From: Bacteroidales bacterium
GTDB lineage: Bacteria > Bacteroidota > Bacteroidia > Bacteroidales > UBA932
Assembly: GCA_017399865.1 (NCBI GenBank)
Contig: JAFQAT010000017.1
Coordinates: 124,001-188,000 of the forward strand
DNA length: 64,000 nt
Reading direction: 5' to 3'
Below the pieces are notes generated by a model. The model was not told the origin of the DNA. It did no database searches and saw only the letters and a program-made list of their open reading frames with translations. The translations under genes were made by a program, and so were the position numbers. Shown one piece after another: positions 14,464 to 28,056 of this stretch; position 1 is the first letter of the stretch; every line of letters starts with the position of its first letter.

Positions 14464-14536
14464 GCGGAAATAGCTCAGTTGGTAGAGCACAACCTTGCCA
14501 AGGTTGGGGTCGCGAGTTCGAGTCTCGTTTTCCGCT
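14464..14536 (+). tRNA. tRNA-Gly (anticodon GCC)
   Basis: 73 nt with a 7-bp acceptor stem (GCGGAAA/TTTCCGC), D-arm, anticodon loop TTGCCAA (GCC) and T-arm with TTCGAGT. CCA is encoded at 14537-14539. The 3' half (from 14511) is the attachment site of the integrative element, and integration keeps the tRNA intact. Confidence 0.96.
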
Positions 14537-14539
14537 CCA
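14511..14539 (+). repeat. attL: 29-bp att core in the 3' end of tRNA-Gly
   Basis: The 29 bp from the T-arm through CCA recur exactly at 27966-27994, marking the left boundary of the integrated element. Similarity between the two ends continues imperfectly for ~100 bp downstream of each core. Confidence 0.92.
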
Positions 14540-14543
14540 AAAG

Positions 14544-14563
14544 AGTCAGCAGAAATGCTGACT
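14544..14563 (+). other. 8-bp hairpin with GAAA loop after tRNA-Gly
   Basis: A perfect 8-bp stem (AGTCAGCA/TGCTGACT) closes a GAAA tetraloop just past the tRNA CCA. An identical copy lies at 28000-28019 beyond attR. It may be a tRNA 3' processing or recombination-related structure. Confidence 0.6.
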
Positions 14564-14603
14564 TAAATTATGAAATAACCAGACGTGGTACAATTATATA
14601 TGC

Positions 14604-17806: not shown

Positions 17807-18394
17807 GTGAGTCAAAAACACACATACACGACATCTGATTATATGGAGTGGAGTACAATGCTCAACCTTGTCAGAAGATTATACCGAGACGGATATTTCT
17901 GTATCAGTATGCTTATCGGTTGCGGATGCTTTTTCGGTCTGAGGATTTCAGACCTCCTTTCCCTGACGTGGAAAATGCTGTTGGAGGGAGATAGTTTTAT
18001 GATACAGGAGAAAAAGACAGGCAAAAGGCGAATAATACGCATCAACCCCAACTTCAGATTGCATATAGAGGACTGCTTCAATGCTCTTGATATTCGGGAC
18101 AAGTCAGAGAAATGCTTTCTATCAAAGAAGAGGACGGTCTATTCTATACAGCGAATCAATGTCATCCTGAAGGAGATTCGGGAGCGATATAACCTGAAGA
18201 TTGAGCATTTCAGTACCCATACTTTCCGTAAGACCTTTGGCAGACAGGTCGTAGAACAAGCAGGAGAGAACAGCGAAATGGCATTGATTAAACTATCTGA
18301 GTTATTCAATCATTCAAGTCCTCAAATTACAAGGCGATATTTAGGTCTAAGACAGGAGGAACTTATGGAAGTATATGATAGTCTTACATTCTGA
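17807..18394 (+). CDS. minimal tyrosine recombinase (catalytic domain only)
   Basis: 195 residues from a GTG at 17807; an in-frame ATG at 17843 would give 183. Unlike the main integrase, the first catalytic Arg is present (FFGLRISDLL), followed by HTFRKTFG (H-x-x-R), NHSS (second His position) and RRYLGL (Tyr). The N-terminal core- and arm-binding domains are absent, so it is either a stand-alone small recombinase (inversion or dimer resolution), a helper of the main integrase, or a truncated relic with an intact frame. Its neighbours give no obvious inverted target; the inverted motif pairs at 16015 and 23136 enclose it and are one candidate. Confidence 0.85.
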   Translation: MSQKHTYTTSDYMEWSTMLNLVRRLYRDGYFCISMLIGCGCFFGLRISDLLSLTWKMLLEGDSFMIQEKKTGKRRIIRINPNFRLHIEDCFNALDIRDKSEKCFLSKKRTVYSIQRINVILKEIRERYNLKIEHFSTHTFRKTFGRQVVEQAGENSEMALIKLSELFNHSSPQITRRYLGLRQEELMEVYDSLTF

Positions 18395-19086: not shown

Positions 19087-20037
19087 ATGAACAATCTATT
19101 TAAAACATTATCATTGATGGTTGTCTTGTTTTCATTGACACTCAATGCTCAGGAGAAAAAACCAACATTAATGATTCTCCCGAGCGACGCTTGGTGCGAA
19201 GCAAGATATTTTACGACGACCTATACCGACATTGATGGTACAAAAGTATCTGTTCCAGATTATCAGAAGGCCTTCAAGGAAGACTCTGAATTAGGAATGA
19301 CAATCAGCAAAATAGGACAACTTCTGACTTCTAAGGGATATTCTCTTAAAGATGCAGAGCAGAACATAAAAAACATTTCTACGAGAACATCTGAAGATAA
19401 TATGACTTTCAGCAAGACATCTGCTTCCACATTTGCAGAAAGTCCACTGGACATGATTAAGAAACGGGCAAAAATGGATATTCTTATTCAGTTGTGGTGG
19501 AAAGTAAATCTAGATGCTGGTGGAAGGAGTGTTTCATTTACTTTGGAAGCATTTGACTCATATACTAACAAACGTATTGCAACAGCAACAGGCACAGGAA
19601 AACCTTCTCAAGAAAGTGTTCCCGTATTGTTGGAAAATGCTGTTAAATCCAAGATAAAAGATTTTGATAAACAGATGACGACATATTATAAGGGACTTCA
19701 CAAACAAGGTCGAGAGGTGCTTTTGACTATCAAACGGTGGGATTCATGGGAAAATGATTTGGAAACAGAGTATGATGGAGAAGAACTCTTGGATTGCATC
19801 CAAGCTTGGCTCCGCAAACATACCTTAAACGGAAACTTCAACTTAACAGACGCTACTGAAAACTTTGCACAATTTGAACAGGTTATGATACCTCTTTATG
19901 ACAGAGACAGTGAAGCAGTGGATGCAAGAAGTTTTGCAGTAGAGTTGAGAAAATATCTCAGAGATGAATATGATATCGTTTCAAAAGTAATGACTAGAGG
20001 ACTTGGAGAAGCGATAATAGTGTTAGGAGAAAAATAA
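19087..20037 (+). CDS. exported DUF6175-like protein
   Basis: 316 residues with a cleavable signal peptide (cleavage near LNAQEKK, residue ~21). The mature start KPTLMILPSDAWC, the IPDYKxA-like VPDYQKAFKEDSELG segment, MDILIQLWWKV strand and the ATENFAQFEQV...PLYD region match my recollection of DUF6175 proteins of Bacteroidota; function unknown. The fold hint is an alpha/beta domain resembling CsgG/FlgO-like periplasmic proteins, an inference only. It lies 8 bp before the next exported protein and is co-transcribed with three others. Confidence 0.65.
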   Translation: MNNLFKTLSLMVVLFSLTLNAQEKKPTLMILPSDAWCEARYFTTTYTDIDGTKVSVPDYQKAFKEDSELGMTISKIGQLLTSKGYSLKDAEQNIKNISTRTSEDNMTFSKTSASTFAESPLDMIKKRAKMDILIQLWWKVNLDAGGRSVSFTLEAFDSYTNKRIATATGTGKPSQESVPVLLENAVKSKIKDFDKQMTTYYKGLHKQGREVLLTIKRWDSWENDLETEYDGEELLDCIQAWLRKHTLNGNFNLTDATENFAQFEQVMIPLYDRDSEAVDARSFAVELRKYLRDEYDIVSKVMTRGLGEAIIVLGEK

Positions 20038-20045
20038 CCTTTTAT

Positions 20046-21161
20046 ATGAAAAAATATACTTTCATACTTTTCCTCGTGGTGATGACATTATCGCTACCTG
20101 CTCAAATCTTAAATGATGAGCAGCGTCTTTCAATACTGCCCTATGTTCCTCAACGAACGGGCTTGTCAGAACCAGCAAGAAGCCTTCTTGAATCCAAAAT
20201 ACAACAGGTGATATCGAATAATGGGATATCCGATAAAGGATTTCAACAACGTTTTGTAATGACCGCCAAAGTCAATGCTACAAGCAAGGATATTATTGCA
20301 GGGCCTCCTTCAATGGTCTCCCTTAAATATGATGTTATGTTTATGATTGGAGATGTGATTGAAAATAAGATATATTCCACAATTACTATTCCGATTGTAG
20401 GCGTTGGCCAGACAGACGCCAAGGCCATGTTGAATGCTCTGAAAGCAATTAAATCCAATGATGCTCGTTTAACTCAATTGATAGAAAAATCTAAGGAGAC
20501 AATCATTTCCTACTATCGCGCAAATAGTCAGAGAATAATTTCTGATGCGTATACCAAAGTAGAGCAAAACATGTATAATGAAGCATTATATATGTTAGCG
20601 TCTGTGCCTGATGTGTGTTTGGATTGTTATTTCTTATGTCAGGATGCAATAGTCGATATCTATAGACGATTGATTAATGATAACGGACAAAGACTCTTAA
20701 ATAAGGCAAAGGAAGAGTGGGCAAAGAATCCTAACTATGTAGGAGCCGAAATCGCAATTAATTATATTGAACAGATTGATATAAATGCAGAATGTCAGAA
20801 TGACGTTCAGAGTCTGTTGGTGGAAATTGGAGAAAAGATAAAGGTGGATGAGAAGAGAGATTGGGACTTTAAGATGCAGAAATATCGAGACGAGCAAAAA
20901 AGAAAACAGCAAGAGTGGGATTTCAAGGTTCAGCAATATGAAGATGCTCTTGAAAAAGAACAGAGAGATTTTGAGTTCGAGAAACAGAAGTACCAAGATG
21001 GTGTAAGAAGAGAAAACCAAGAATTAGACTTCGCTCGTCATAAGTTTGATACCAATGCAGCAATAGAGAAACAAACTATATCTGCAGCTAGAGATGTTGC
21101 TATAGAATATGCTAAGAATCAACCTGAGACAATTAATTATAATAATATTATTTACTGGTAA
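20046..21161 (+). CDS. exported protein with four 18-residue coiled-coil repeats
   Basis: 371 residues with a signal peptide (cleavage near SLPAQ, residue ~20). Residues 25-165 look like a CsgG/LPP20-type alpha/beta domain (GVGQTDAKAMLNALKAI). Residues 165-265 are helical. Residues 271-342 are four exact 18-residue repeats (start residues 271, 289, 307, 325) with the pattern x-x-(W/F/L)-(D/E)-F-x-x-x-(Q/H)-(K/Q)-(Y/F)-x-D, predicted as a long charged helix. The C-terminus ends in aromatic IIYW. Family not recognised. It is tightly packed with the genes at 19087 (8-bp gap) and 21167 (5-bp gap), suggesting a complex in the periplasm or outer membrane. Confidence 0.7.
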   Translation: MKKYTFILFLVVMTLSLPAQILNDEQRLSILPYVPQRTGLSEPARSLLESKIQQVISNNGISDKGFQQRFVMTAKVNATSKDIIAGPPSMVSLKYDVMFMIGDVIENKIYSTITIPIVGVGQTDAKAMLNALKAIKSNDARLTQLIEKSKETIISYYRANSQRIISDAYTKVEQNMYNEALYMLASVPDVCLDCYFLCQDAIVDIYRRLINDNGQRLLNKAKEEWAKNPNYVGAEIAINYIEQIDINAECQNDVQSLLVEIGEKIKVDEKRDWDFKMQKYRDEQKRKQQEWDFKVQQYEDALEKEQRDFEFEKQKYQDGVRRENQELDFARHKFDTNAAIEKQTISAARDVAIEYAKNQPETINYNNIIYW

Positions 21162-21166
21162 TCAAC

Positions 21167-22639
21167 ATGAAAAAGATTTTAACAACATTGTTATTGCTCT
21201 TAGCAATCGTAAACCTATCAGCAAAAAGTAATGAGGTCGTAACATTGACGTGTTCAGGTTCAGCGAAAACTGAGGCAGAGGCGATAAACATTGCACTTAG
21301 GAGTGCAATAGAGCAAACCTATGGAGCGTTTATTTCGTCTAATACGAACATTATCAATGACAAACTGGTCAAAGATGAAATAGTCTCCATTTCCAATGGA
21401 AATATTCAGGGGTACGATAAGATAGCTGTGATAAACCACCCTAATGGAAGCATAAACGTAACTTTAAGAGCGACAGTGTCAATCAACAAACTTGTAGATT
21501 TTGCTGTTAGCAATGGCGCTACAGTAAACTTTGATGGAAGTACATACGCTGCGAATGTCAAGATGGCAAAACTCCGTCAAGAAAACACATTTAAAGCATT
21601 CTCAAACATGTGTGACCAAGTAGAAGAAATGTGTCCGAGGGCATTTGATTGGCACATAAGAATGGAAACTCCTAAAGCATACTCTAACAATGTCACAGTT
21701 ACTGTTGAACTTATTCCCAATGCTGTAACAGTCGAGATATACCAACTTATAAACAGAACCATTCGTTCGCTGGCTCTGTCCGAATCTGACATCCAATTAT
21801 ATAATACAATGGGCATTAGAACATTCTGTTATCATAATCCTGATATATATAAATACGAAAAAGCGAAAAGAGGTGGTCATTGGCAGCGTGTGGAAGTCTC
21901 TGAAAATCCAATTATTTTACCTATTTCAAACGATGTCAGATATGATGAGCGCCAATTTTATAAGAGGCAACAAAACATGTTTGACTCAATTATTGAGTCA
22001 ATGAAAAACTATACAATATCAGAAATACATACGGACCCCTCTATCGTAAGAGAACACAACCTAAACTTGCATGCATTACAGATAGATATGACAATCGTAG
22101 AAGGTCCTAGCGAAACTCATAGAGTATATCGTTTAGAAGATATCTTCGATAAAGATGCTTTTAAAATAGTGAACTGGAAAGACTGGGATAATAATAAAAT
22201 AATTGATTCGCAATCAATTGATTATGAATACTCATCTGAGGCTCTTGGGGATACATTTGAATATTTGTATGAGCATGGAATGTCTAGGTATGAATTAGAA
22301 GAAATTATGGAGGAGACAGCTTCTGTTGGAAGCACGCTGTCCTATTTGGAGCGTTTTCATTATGACGCCTTTAGTTTTCTCTATAGAAAGTATGTTCCTG
22401 CTAAAACCAAAAACTCAAAAAAAACAACAGGAGATTGGTCCAAAAAAGTAGAAACCTTGTTGGAATATATACCCACCAAAGGAGTAACGTTGTATACTTG
22501 GACTCATAGTATTCCTGCGGAAACAGTTAAAAACGATACTTTCCGAGGTTTTAAGATAGAGCGAAAAAACACTGAGTTTAAAAAAGAAGCAGATGAGACG
22601 GATATTGACAATGATATTTTTGATTTCCTTGGTATTTAG
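21167..22639 (+). CDS. exported protein with FlgT/LPP20-like N-terminal domain
   Basis: 490 residues with a signal peptide (cleavage near LSAKS, residue ~20). The mature N-terminus, with VTLTCSGSAKTEAEAINIAL and QTYGAFISSNT, has the G-x-G/S-x-x-x-T-E-x-E-A-x-x-x-A-L pattern of FlgT-N and LPP20 domains, which in other bacteria help build outer-membrane or flagellar-basal structures. The remaining ~350 residues are not recognised. The end overlaps the next ORF by 47 bp in another frame, so translation is probably coupled. With the genes at 19087 and 20046 it forms a set of exported proteins that likely act together. No flagellum genes are present, so the role is not motility. Confidence 0.7.
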   Translation: MKKILTTLLLLLAIVNLSAKSNEVVTLTCSGSAKTEAEAINIALRSAIEQTYGAFISSNTNIINDKLVKDEIVSISNGNIQGYDKIAVINHPNGSINVTLRATVSINKLVDFAVSNGATVNFDGSTYAANVKMAKLRQENTFKAFSNMCDQVEEMCPRAFDWHIRMETPKAYSNNVTVTVELIPNAVTVEIYQLINRTIRSLALSESDIQLYNTMGIRTFCYHNPDIYKYEKAKRGGHWQRVEVSENPIILPISNDVRYDERQFYKRQQNMFDSIIESMKNYTISEIHTDPSIVREHNLNLHALQIDMTIVEGPSETHRVYRLEDIFDKDAFKIVNWKDWDNNKIIDSQSIDYEYSSEALGDTFEYLYEHGMSRYELEEIMEETASVGSTLSYLERFHYDAFSFLYRKYVPAKTKNSKKTTGDWSKKVETLLEYIPTKGVTLYTWTHSIPAETVKNDTFRGFKIERKNTEFKKEADETDIDNDIFDFLGI

Positions 22640-23054
22640 TTCGAGTGCTCAGAGTTATAATTTAGAAAAGGTAGAGTTTACAAACTATATAAAGAGGATG
22701 TATCAAAATGAACGATTTGAAGGACTACGAATAGTTACGGATTATGATAGCACTTATATGATTGTTGTTATTCGTATTGACAATTCTTCTGCTCCTGAAA
22801 GTTCACTATCTCGTGTTGCTTCTGTCAAAGCAATGAATGAAGCGAATCGCTATATAAATGGTTCGCTCATTAAGTCAGAGTTTATATATGAGATGAAGCA
22901 AGTAAAAAAAGGAAAAAAGGTGGAAATGCAGGAGAATATAATAGACAACATTCACGAAAACTCAATGGGGTATGTAAAATCTCTAGAGTTGCTCTCCTCA
23001 TTTGAAGAAGAAACGAAAAAGATATATATCTTCGGTAGAAAACTCGCTATGTAA
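22593..23054 (+). CDS. small exported protein, last gene of the cargo operon
   Basis: 153 residues with a signal peptide (MRRILTMIFLISLVFSSSAQ). The mature part is an alpha/beta domain with YDSTYMIVVIRIDN and ASVKAMNEANRYINGS, again reminiscent of the LPP20-type repeated helix. The start lies 47 bp inside the upstream gene; signal peptide quality and length support it as real rather than a shadow. It is followed by a strong terminator at 23078-23117. Family not recognised. Confidence 0.65.
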   Translation: MRRILTMIFLISLVFSSSAQSYNLEKVEFTNYIKRMYQNERFEGLRIVTDYDSTYMIVVIRIDNSSAPESSLSRVASVKAMNEANRYINGSLIKSEFIYEMKQVKKGKKVEMQENIIDNIHENSMGYVKSLELLSSFEEETKKIYIFGRKLAM

Positions 23055-23077
23055 ATCTTAGGATATACCCTTGTGCT

Positions 23078-23117
23078 ATAATGAGAGGAATTGACATAAG
23101 TCATATCCTCTCATTAT
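23078..23117 (+). terminator. terminator of the cargo operon
   Basis: A 12-bp perfect stem (ATAATGAGAGGA with TCCTCTCATTAT) encloses a loop that itself contains TTGAC/GTCA; T-rich sequence follows. Confidence 0.75.
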
Positions 23118-23135
23118 TATTAATTATTATATGTT

Positions 23136-23170
23136 GGTAAAAATGACCACCCCTGACGGTACTTTTGACT
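23136..23170 (-). repeat. inverted copy of the paired 13-bp motif
   Basis: GGTAAAAATGACC (23136-23148) and GGTACTTTTGACT (23158-23170) are 22 bp apart and inverse to the pair at 16015-16049. The flanking TTATTATATGTTGGTA is shared as well, giving a ~50-bp inverted repeat around the 7-kb interior segment. Confidence 0.6.
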
Positions 23171-23201
23171 ATCCTACGAACACTTGTACCTTTTATAGAG
23201 A

Positions 23202-23614
23202 AACAGAGATAACACCGTCAGGCATTATCTCTGTTATAAACACCGAGGGGAAGAAGAACCGCTAAGGAGCGGTCAAGGTTCAAGCCTCATCACTTAGCAT
23301 CCCCTAATGCGTCTGTAATGTGAACGAACCTTTACTACTTTGCCATTGATTGAGCGCCTATGCGCTCTAACTCTGACATACTTAGGGGCTTCAACTTCGA
23401 TACGAAGCATCAGCAGTAGCAATAGGAATGTTATCATATGAAAATAATGTGGGCGTCAGTGCCCGTTTGCTGAGAAAATTGTAAAACATCCTTCGGCTCA
23501 ACTGTGTACGTCCCTCGGCTTCTATGTCTTACCTCCTTAAAAGAAGAAAAGGTATTCAGTAGGGGCTGAATACCTAATCCGCTTTCTCAGCAAGCCTTTC
23601 GGCTCATTTCCATA
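23202..23614 (-). ncRNA. predicted large structured RNA of the element
   Basis: No convincing ORF lies in 23055-23701. On the minus strand a near-perfect promoter (23623-23653) precedes ~410 nt rich in perfect helices: ATCATATG/CATATGAT (23433-23440 with 23611-23618), an 11-bp stem 23467-23477 with 23583-23593, a 9-bp hairpin 23551-23574, a GAAA-capped hairpin 23593-23604, GAGCGC/GCGCTC 23352-23367, CCCCTAA/TTAGGGG (23301-23307 with 23382-23388), ACCGCT/AGCGGT 23258-23273, and a final 11-bp hairpin 23202-23235 followed by a U-rich tail. The final loop is complementary over 9 nt to 23152-23160. I infer an abundant independent RNA; class unknown. Confidence 0.6.
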
Positions 23615-23622
23615 TGATGTTG

Positions 23623-23653
23623 CAAAGGTAAGACTTTTTAGGATTCACACAAA
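23623..23653 (-). promoter_or_regulatory. promoter of the predicted large RNA
   Basis: Read on the minus strand: -33 TTTG (23653-23650), exactly 19 bp, then -7 TACCTTTG (23630-23623). This is the same spacing and box as the tRNA-Gly promoter. Transcription would start near 23614 and run leftwards. Confidence 0.75.
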
Positions 23654-23674
23654 TATTAGATGAAAAAACTTTCG

Positions 23675-23682
23675 TAAGTTTG
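23675..23682 (+). promoter_or_regulatory. -7 element of the 23702 gene
   Basis: TAAGTTTG fits TAnnTTTG and lies 19 bp before the ATG, divergent from the structured-RNA promoter. The -33 region is weak. Confidence 0.5.
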
Positions 23683-23701
23683 CACCATAGATGATAAACA
23701 T

Positions 23702-27965: not shown

Positions 27966-27994
27966 CGCGAGTTCGAGTCTCGTTTTCCGCTCCA
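27966..27994 (+). repeat. attR: 29-bp copy of the tRNA-Gly 3' end
   Basis: Exact duplicate of 14511-14539. It lacks the 5' half of the tRNA, so it is a truncated copy left by integration. Confidence 0.92.
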
Positions 27995-28056
27995 GAAAAA
28001 GTCAGCAGAAATGCTGACTTAAATTATGAATAACCAGACGTGGTACAATTATATTC

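What the first reader, a model, noticed from the sequence alone, without database searches (positions are those of the whole stretch)
23202..23653. Candidate new large structured RNA (~410 nt) in the integrative element
The 650-bp gap 23055-23701 lacks a convincing ORF, yet the minus strand has a near-perfect Bacteroides promoter (TTTG, 19 bp, TACCTTTG) and at least eight perfect helices, including an 11-bp long-range stem, a GAAA-capped hairpin and a terminator-like 3' hairpin whose 12-nt loop is complementary over 9 nt to sequence just beyond it. Phages and satellites are known to carry large ornate RNAs (GOLLD, ROOL); I cannot match this one by eye. The helices are seen directly; transcription and class are inferred.
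Basis: partly seen in the sequence, partly recalled or inferred. Interest (0 to 1): 0.86.

Follow-up and report, generated by a model that had tools for sequence, protein, structure and literature searches.

The report
Mobile folded RNA encoding small protein
The stretch is a small, repeatedly relocated gene found mainly in one group of uncultured gut Bacteroidales, whose RNA folds into a conserved knotted structure around its own start region and carries the code for a tiny, strongly basic protein that matches no family in the libraries searched.

Summary
I found 101 unique ORF matches, four of them doubtful. The ORF occurs in 123 of 400 same-genus genomes; wider samples gave only weak matches outside the genus. 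Each unit has a promoter, a 128-193 nt leader, 43-60 codons and a 3' end. Partner-swap tests support four long-range helices. P1 pairs the RNA's 5' end with the sequence at the AUG (AUG wholly inside P1 in 30 of 66 units). P5 pairs the leader with early codons. P4 pairs the leader with sequence after the stop codon, so the ORF lies in a pseudoknot loop. The ORF is under purifying selection (pN/pS 0.40). Many copies moved as a cassette, often downstream of tRNA genes (14 of 86). No credible Rfam, Pfam, NCBIfam, PHROG or PDB match. Best reading: a self-repressing mRNA or RNA-protein gene of mobile elements. Structure and coding are well supported; transcription and function are inferred. Nearest analogue in architecture: type I toxin mRNAs.

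The parts
23650..23653 (-). promoter -33 element TTTG
   Evidence: promoter of this pattern in 80 of 88 units
23623..23630 (-). promoter -7 element TACCTTTG
23604..23618 (-). P1 5' strand (expected 5' end of the RNA)
   Evidence: pairs with 23433-23447; swap test 0 of 2000, own partner best in 51 of 66; at least 9 bp in 56 of 66 units, 54 distinct sequences
23594..23603 (-). GCC-GAAA-GGC hairpin
23583..23593 (-).
23550..23575 (-). P3 hairpin, the most conserved local helix
23512..23519 (-). P4 5' strand GCCGAGGG
   Evidence: pairs with 23242-23249 across the ORF; nearly invariant in close copies, compensated in distant ones
23485..23491 (-). P5 5' strand GGATGTT
   Evidence: pairs with codons 2-5 of the ORF; changes on both sides at 5 of 7 pairs in 15 units
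23467..23477 (-). P2 3' strand
23451..23464 (-). P6 hairpin GGGC...GCCC (absent in some copies)
   Evidence: changes on both sides at 3 of 4 pairs; gapped in 4 of 15 units
23433..23447 (-). P1 3' strand, contains the ATG (23435-23437)
23294..23437 (-). 47-aa basic ORF
   Evidence: AlphaFold2 model pLDDT 84.8, pTM 0.43
23425..23432 (-). P5 3' strand, inside the ORF
23258..23273 (-). P7 hairpin ACCGCT...AGCGGT after the stop codon
23242..23249 (-). P4 3' strand CCCTCGGT
23203..23234 (-). P8 terminator-like hairpin, about the 3' end of the unit
   Evidence: 11-bp stem, changes on both sides at 7 of 11 pairs in 15 units; shared sequence ends about here in many pairs of close copies
14511..14574 (+). 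attL-like repeat at the 3' end of tRNA-Gly
   Evidence: 29- and 31-nt exact blocks repeated at 27966-28030
27966..28030 (+). attR-like repeat: right end of the 13.5-kb element that holds the unit

Best explanation
A mobile, self-contained gene cassette. Its own promoter makes a ~400-nt RNA that folds as one unit around a small ORF. The 5' end of the RNA pairs with the sequence at the AUG (P1), the leader pairs with the first codons (P5), and the leader pairs with sequence just after the stop codon (P4), which closes a pseudoknot loop over the ORF. Translation of the 43-60 aa basic protein should therefore be off or slow until the fold is opened by processing, by a helper factor, or by the protein itself. 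The protein has a median net charge of +11 and a predicted beta-hairpin fold, so I infer that it binds nucleic acid, most simply its own RNA. That would give an autoregulated RNA-protein module carried by integrative elements and phages. Shown by sequence comparison: the helices, the coding, cassette-like boundaries in many copies, the mobile context. Inferred: transcription, translational repression, RNA binding, benefit to the element.
For: Helices: own strands pair better than swapped ones for P1, P2, P4 and P5 (0 of 2000 permutations each; four control region pairs were reached by 164, 29, 1613 and 240 of 2000) in 66 dereplicated units. In 15 close units 81.9% of cells pair against 75.8% shuffled and the covariation score is 0.225 against 0.138, 0 of 500 each; slid versions pair 43-47%. 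Leader z mean -4.6 over 66 units, below -2 in 65 (40 shuffles each); AUG paired with p>0.5 in 54 of 66, mean 0.79 against 0.56 in shuffles. AUG wholly within P1 in 30 of 66, partly in 8. Coding: pooled pN/pS 0.40, 29 pairs. RNA-like constraint inside the ORF: L24 CTT 50 of 53, V25 GTC 73 of 76, G36 GGC 75 of 79, while V41 uses four codons. RNA and ORF go together: of 43 RNA-model hits with E <= 1e-12, 35 have the ORF, 7 a broken one, 1 lies at a contig edge. Cassette: of 23 pairs of copies at least 85% identical with 500 nt of flank on both sides, 14 share 300 nt or less beyond the ORF on either side (boundaries). Mobile context: a tRNA gene on the same strand within 600 nt upstream in 14 of 86 units, against 1 of 86, 0 of 87 and 1 of 87 for the other side/strand combinations; 9 of 131 scanned neighbour proteins are phage-type integrases and 3 resolvases.
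Against: No transcript or protein data. P1 of 9 bp or more ends before the AUG in 18 of 66 units and is shorter than 9 bp in 10, so direct locking of the AUG is not universal. P4 hardly varies in the close family, so its support comes from distant copies. P2, P4 and P5 are weaker than P1 (own partner best in 14, 3 and 2 of 66). MAFFT misaligns P1 and P2 (50% and 67% of cells paired). The measure 'further pair types' is not significant (44 of 500 shuffles). A column-pair covariation scan was dominated by subfamily signal: 20-29% of the top 70 pairs were pairable in most sequences, against 6-8% background. The fixed synonymous sites were not corrected for codon bias or kinship. The RNA model was built from ORF-bearing copies, which favours finding ORF-bearing hits. 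9 of the 23 pairs share longer flanks. The protein has no significant structural match.
Confidence: 0.5

Rival explanations
1. Toxin mRNA of a type I-like toxin-antitoxin module: the full-length mRNA is inert through long-range pairing and becomes active after processing.
For: Start-region pairing plus pairing of the leader with the 3' end, small protein, several copies in some genomes, mobile elements. The H. pylori aapA3 mRNA has a 5'-3' long-distance interaction that makes it inert, and a serine codon conserved for RNA reasons (PMC6733600, passages read).
Against: No antisense promoter signal: 3 of 88 units, the same as 3 of 88 flanks. The proteins are basic (net charge 7-16); 8 of 85, the window copy among them, have a 15-residue stretch of Kyte-Doolittle mean 1.6 or more.
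Confidence: 0.2
2. The RNA itself is the main product (scaffold, decoy or trans-regulator) and the ORF supplies its cognate binding protein.
For: Nearly fixed synonymous sites in the ORF; one ORF-deleted copy (L145) keeps P1 (computed) and both P4 strands (by eye).
Against: The ORF evolves as protein and is present in 35 of 43 strong RNA hits; five of the seven broken copies look like truncated remnants by eye.
Confidence: 0.25
3. Ordinary small-protein gene with a cis-regulatory leader (riboswitch, attenuator or r-protein-like autoregulation).
For: The leader sits upstream of a single conserved ORF and pairs around its AUG.
Against: P4 reaches past the stop codon, and there is no constant genomic context.
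Confidence: 0.2
4. DNA-level element: the inverted repeats act as folded single-stranded DNA in recombination.
For: Cassette-like movement and tRNA-adjacent sites.
Against: P1 runs from just after the promoter to the AUG and P5 ends in the codons, which fits an mRNA; P1, P2, P3 and P5 lie inside the expected transcript and not at the ends of the cassette.
Confidence: 0.05
5. Purely non-coding ornate RNA, as first proposed.
For: Rich structure.
Against: Conserved ORF under purifying selection.
Confidence: 0.03

Closest known systems
Type I toxin mRNAs: aapA3 and hok (PMC6733600, passages read); aapA1 (recalled)
   Same: Small ORF in a compact mRNA whose start region is sequestered and whose 5' and 3' parts pair over a long distance; a codon can be conserved for RNA reasons.
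   Different: Here the sequence at the AUG pairs with the RNA's own 5' end, a pseudoknot spans the ORF, no antisense promoter signal was found, and the proteins are strongly basic.
Dual-function RNAs such as SgrS/SgrT and RNAIII (recalled) and VcdRP/VcdP (PMC8672173, abstract start seen)
   Same: RNA with an internal short ORF.
   Different: Here the first codons are part of the conserved fold, and the unit is mobile and can be multi-copy. Target regulation by pairing was not examined.
GOLLD, ROOL, OLE (PMC12286853, abstract start seen)
   Same: Large structured bacterial RNA; element or phage and rumen context here.
   Different: No Rfam match; coding; about 400 nt with the ORF inside.
Candidate structured RNAs of human microbiomes (PMC8040213, passages read)
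   Same: That study notes that 99 of its candidates may overlap small genes.

Membership tests
Any Rfam family (GOLLD, ROOL, HEARO, RNase P, tmRNA and others) | covariance-model score at or above the gathering cut-off | tested here: not met
   Searches (window; 18 homologous loci): only tRNAs reached a cut-off; three matches far below their cut-offs
Type I toxin-antitoxin | cis-encoded antisense RNA | tested here: inconclusive
   promoter-pattern scan only: 3 of 88 units, equal to 3 of 88 flanks
Type I toxin-antitoxin | small hydrophobic toxin peptide | tested here: not met
   43-60 aa, net charge 7-16, median 11; 8 of 85 have a hydrophobic 15-residue stretch
Type I toxin-antitoxin | mRNA start region paired, leader paired with 3' part | tested here: met
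   P1, P4, P5 by comparison; not shown in cells
Type I toxin-antitoxin | toxicity of the peptide | not testable with these tools
   needs expression
Dual-function RNA | conserved translated ORF | tested here: inconclusive
   selection on the ORF; translation itself not observed
Dual-function RNA | separate base-pairing regulator activity | not tested
   no target search was made
Known small-protein family | match in Pfam, NCBIfam, PHROGs or PDB sequences | tested here: not met
   Pfam and NCBIfam: 23 members, best E 0.032 and 0.016, one to three members each; Pfam and PHROGs for the window copy: none; PDB profile search best E 0.19

The most novel reading that the evidence does not exclude
A new class of selfish RNA-protein gene: a mobile cassette whose mRNA is a pseudoknotted RNA that uses its own 5' end to lock its start region, encodes the protein that binds and controls that RNA, and in one large subfamily ends through a long-range terminator whose two arms lie about 260 nt apart on either side of the ORF.
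Probability: 0.3. Interest if true: 0.9.

Novelty: new variant of a known kind. Interest (0 to 1): 0.7.

Why it matters
It joins a new RNA family and a new small-protein family in one transferable unit, and the two are interlocked: the helices use the start region and the first codons. It offers dozens of natural variants on which to test how structure at the start codon controls translation in a phylum without Shine-Dalgarno sequences (PMC6847099, passages read), and it may be a so far unseen regulator of Bacteroidales mobile elements.

Tried and rejected
Rfam with a permissive threshold gave only chance-level matches. blastn and tblastn in phage and plasmid records found nothing, apart from one Salmonella phage under two accessions at E 0.3 (plasmids were searched only with the window unit and its protein). 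L004 was judged a spurious blastn hit and dropped. L064, L065, L067 and L110 were dropped from unit statistics as doubtful or truncated, L014, L086, L027 and L070 as incomplete; L041 and units without a recognised leader start or with a leader under 125 nt were also left out of the swap test. So 101 unique ORF matches became 83 units and 66 after dereplication; searches used 88 and 86-87. A column-pair covariation scan was too dominated by subfamily signal to rank helices. Direct repeats of 12 nt or more flank 10 of 86 units against 0-3 in five shuffles, so no general target-site duplication is claimed. A remnant of a convergent gene beside several copies could not be identified and was not searched in a database. 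A search for a constant neighbour gene found none; 131 of 173 nearest neighbours were scanned. Of four weak matches in the order outside the genus (E 1.6e-4 to 8.7e-4), L180, L181 and L184 showed no unit by eye and L183 was not looked at. Foldseek against the PDB gave no significant match (best E 0.18); the viral structure library was not searched because the machine was busy.

Full report
What the window holds. The minus strand at 23202-23653 has a Bacteroides-type promoter (TTTG, 19 bp, TACCTTTG) and folds far better than shuffled sequence: z -6.8 for 23197-23617 and -5.4 for the 5' part. No Rfam family other than tRNA matches the window. The stretch lies inside a 13.5-kb element bounded by a repeat of the tRNA-Gly 3' end (14511-14574 and 27966-28030), with a tyrosine integrase, a primase-helicase and an Erf-like protein.

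The ORF. Two relatives found by blastn (L002 and L003, among 4 of 101 genomes matched including the window's own and one spurious hit) share a minus-strand ORF with the window, 23294-23437. A profile of it matched 123 of 400 same-genus genomes, in one of them six times. A phylum-wide sample gave 2 of 395 including the window's own genome. An order-wide sample gave 7 of 393: own, two of the same genus and four weak matches. A scan of named genomes gave 29 loci, nearly all uncultured Bacteroidales from rumen and gut; two loci come from one record named Prevotellaceae, one from a record named Lentimicrobiaceae (L060, a close relative of L008) and a weak one from Saprospiraceae. Two IMG/VR contigs carry it; L036 has phage tail genes and a methyltransferase, L035 was not annotated. 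In 29 hand-picked related pairs pooled pN/pS is 0.40, which supports a protein gene. The 85 aligned proteins (length-filtered to 42-62 aa) are 43-60 aa with net charge 7-16. Pfam, NCBIfam, PHROGs and PDB sequences give no credible match. AlphaFold2 predicts for the window copy an N-terminal helix and four strands (mean pLDDT 84.8, 94-95 over residues 21-40; pTM only 0.43), with no significant fold match.

The RNA. Aligning the units shows one architecture. P1 pairs the first nucleotides after the promoter with the sequence at the AUG. Among 66 dereplicated units, P1 has at least 9 bp in 56, with 54 different sequences; it contains the AUG wholly in 30, partly in 8, and ends before it in 18. 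Then come a small hairpin, P2, the P3 hairpin, the P4 5' strand, the P5 5' strand, in many copies a further hairpin, the ORF, a hairpin after the stop codon, the P4 3' strand and the end. P4 and P5 both cross P1, so the fold is pseudoknotted. I tested each long-range helix by swapping partners among the 66 units. Own pairing scored 23.5 against 11.5 swapped for P1, 17.6 against 13.3 for P2, 23.1 against 19.1 for P4 and 16.3 against 13.8 for P5; no permutation of 2000 reached any of them. Four control region pairs were reached by 164, 29, 1613 and 240 of 2000. The own partner was the single best in 51, 14, 3 and 2 of 66 for P1, P2, P4 and P5; P4 strands are shared by many copies. Examples of compensated P4 forms: CCGAGGGG/CCCCTCGG, CTCGAGGGG/CCCCTCGAG, ACTGAGGGG/CCCCTCAGT, CCAAGGGG/CCCCTTGG, ACCGTCGG/CCGACGGT, GTCGAAGG/CCTTCGAC. 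In the 15 closest units the named structure gives 81.9% paired cells and covariation score 0.225 against 75.8% and 0.138 shuffled, 0 of 500 for both; slid structures fall to 43-47%; the count of further pair types is not significant, 44 of 500. Weak points: P4 hardly varies among those 15, and P1 and P2 are partly misaligned there.

RNA-like constraint inside the ORF. Some synonymous sites are almost fixed: Leu24 CTT 50 of 53, Val25 GTC 73 of 76, Gly36 GGC 75 of 79. Val41 by contrast uses GTC 42, GTT 31, GTA 6 and GTG 4. I did not correct for codon bias or kinship, so this is suggestive. The leader and ORF go together: of 43 hits (E <= 1e-12) of an RNA model of one subfamily's leader (R1, from 24 leaders of ORF-bearing copies, hence biased towards them), 35 have the ORF, 7 a broken one and 1 is cut by a contig end; in all, 44 of 200 genomes matched at E <= 0.001. 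The window's own genome has a second copy at a contig edge (G000:C23).

The unit moves. Of 23 pairs of copies at least 85% identical with 500 nt of flank on both sides, 14 share no more than 300 nt beyond the ORF on either side; 8 share a longer upstream and 3 a longer downstream stretch, two of them both. Examples: L077/L081, 92%, from 207 nt before the ATG to 67 nt after the stop; L034/L080, 91%, from 211 to 58. The end of the shared part lies near the P4 3' strand or the terminator. A tRNA gene on the same strand lies within 600 nt upstream of the promoter region in 14 of 86 units; the three other side/strand combinations give 1 of 86, 0 of 87 and 1 of 87. Of 131 scanned neighbour proteins, 9 match the phage integrase family and 3 the resolvase family; the rest are diverse.

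How it may work. In Flavobacterium, of the same phylum, mRNAs lack Shine-Dalgarno sequences, nucleotides around the start codon tend to be unpaired, and structure tunes initiation (PMC6847099, passages read). Here the AUG is paired with p>0.5 in 54 of 66 leaders, mean 0.79 against 0.56 in shuffles. The likely effect is a repressed mRNA. In the subfamily with AACCGAGGGGA-type strands the P4 3' strand is often followed directly by a run of T: by an automatic helix choice 34 of 88 units have at least 5 T in the next 9 nt, a few of these with a mis-chosen helix (for example L020, L071), and a strict local-hairpin test was negative in 15 of the 34. This suggests, but does not show, a terminator whose arms lie on both sides of the ORF. 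What opens the fold is unknown. I favour the encoded basic protein or processing of the RNA; this step is inference.

Novelty. Not in Rfam, and not seen in the listings of paper searches. The supplementary tables of the microbiome structured-RNA survey could not be read, so an earlier anonymous listing is possible. That the host genus is Cryptobacteroides is only my recall-based guess and comes from no call.

Noticed in passing
14511-14574 and 27966-28030: Direct repeat of the tRNA-Gly 3' end that bounds a 13.5-kb integrative element holding the unit, an integrase, a primase-helicase and an Erf-like gene.
   Followed up: partly
17807-18394: A 195-aa ORF inside the element that reads by eye like a second tyrosine recombinase.
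   Followed up: no
19087-23054: Row of four ORFs on the plus strand inside the element, the first a DUF6175 protein, the next two without Pfam match and the last with only a sub-threshold one; possible cargo.
   Followed up: no
G000:C23:51539-51702 (L158): Second copy of the RNA in the window's own genome, cut by the contig end.
   Followed up: partly
L098, L101, L103, L126, L099, L112, L123, L127, just 3' of the unit: About 30-codon C-terminal remnant of an unidentified convergent gene; a GTTCGA motif like a tRNA T-arm lies within 300 nt after the P4 region in 11 of 86 units.
   Followed up: partly
L182 (G350:C13:39789-39908): Very diverged relative whose 5' end still pairs with the sequence before its ATG by eye; its protein ends in VKGYTRKKK, which may link to a wider family.
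   Followed up: partly
L021 (-217 and +60), L040, L092, L113: Direct repeats flank some units: 23 bp in L021 and L040, 358 bp in L092, 80 bp in L113.
   Followed up: no
L108, L072, L124, L177: Two units close together, about 0.7 to 2 kb apart.
   Followed up: no
neighbour proteins in alignment A9: One of 131 neighbour proteins matches a Cas9 model (PADLOC E 3.8e-29); which one was not resolved.
   Followed up: no
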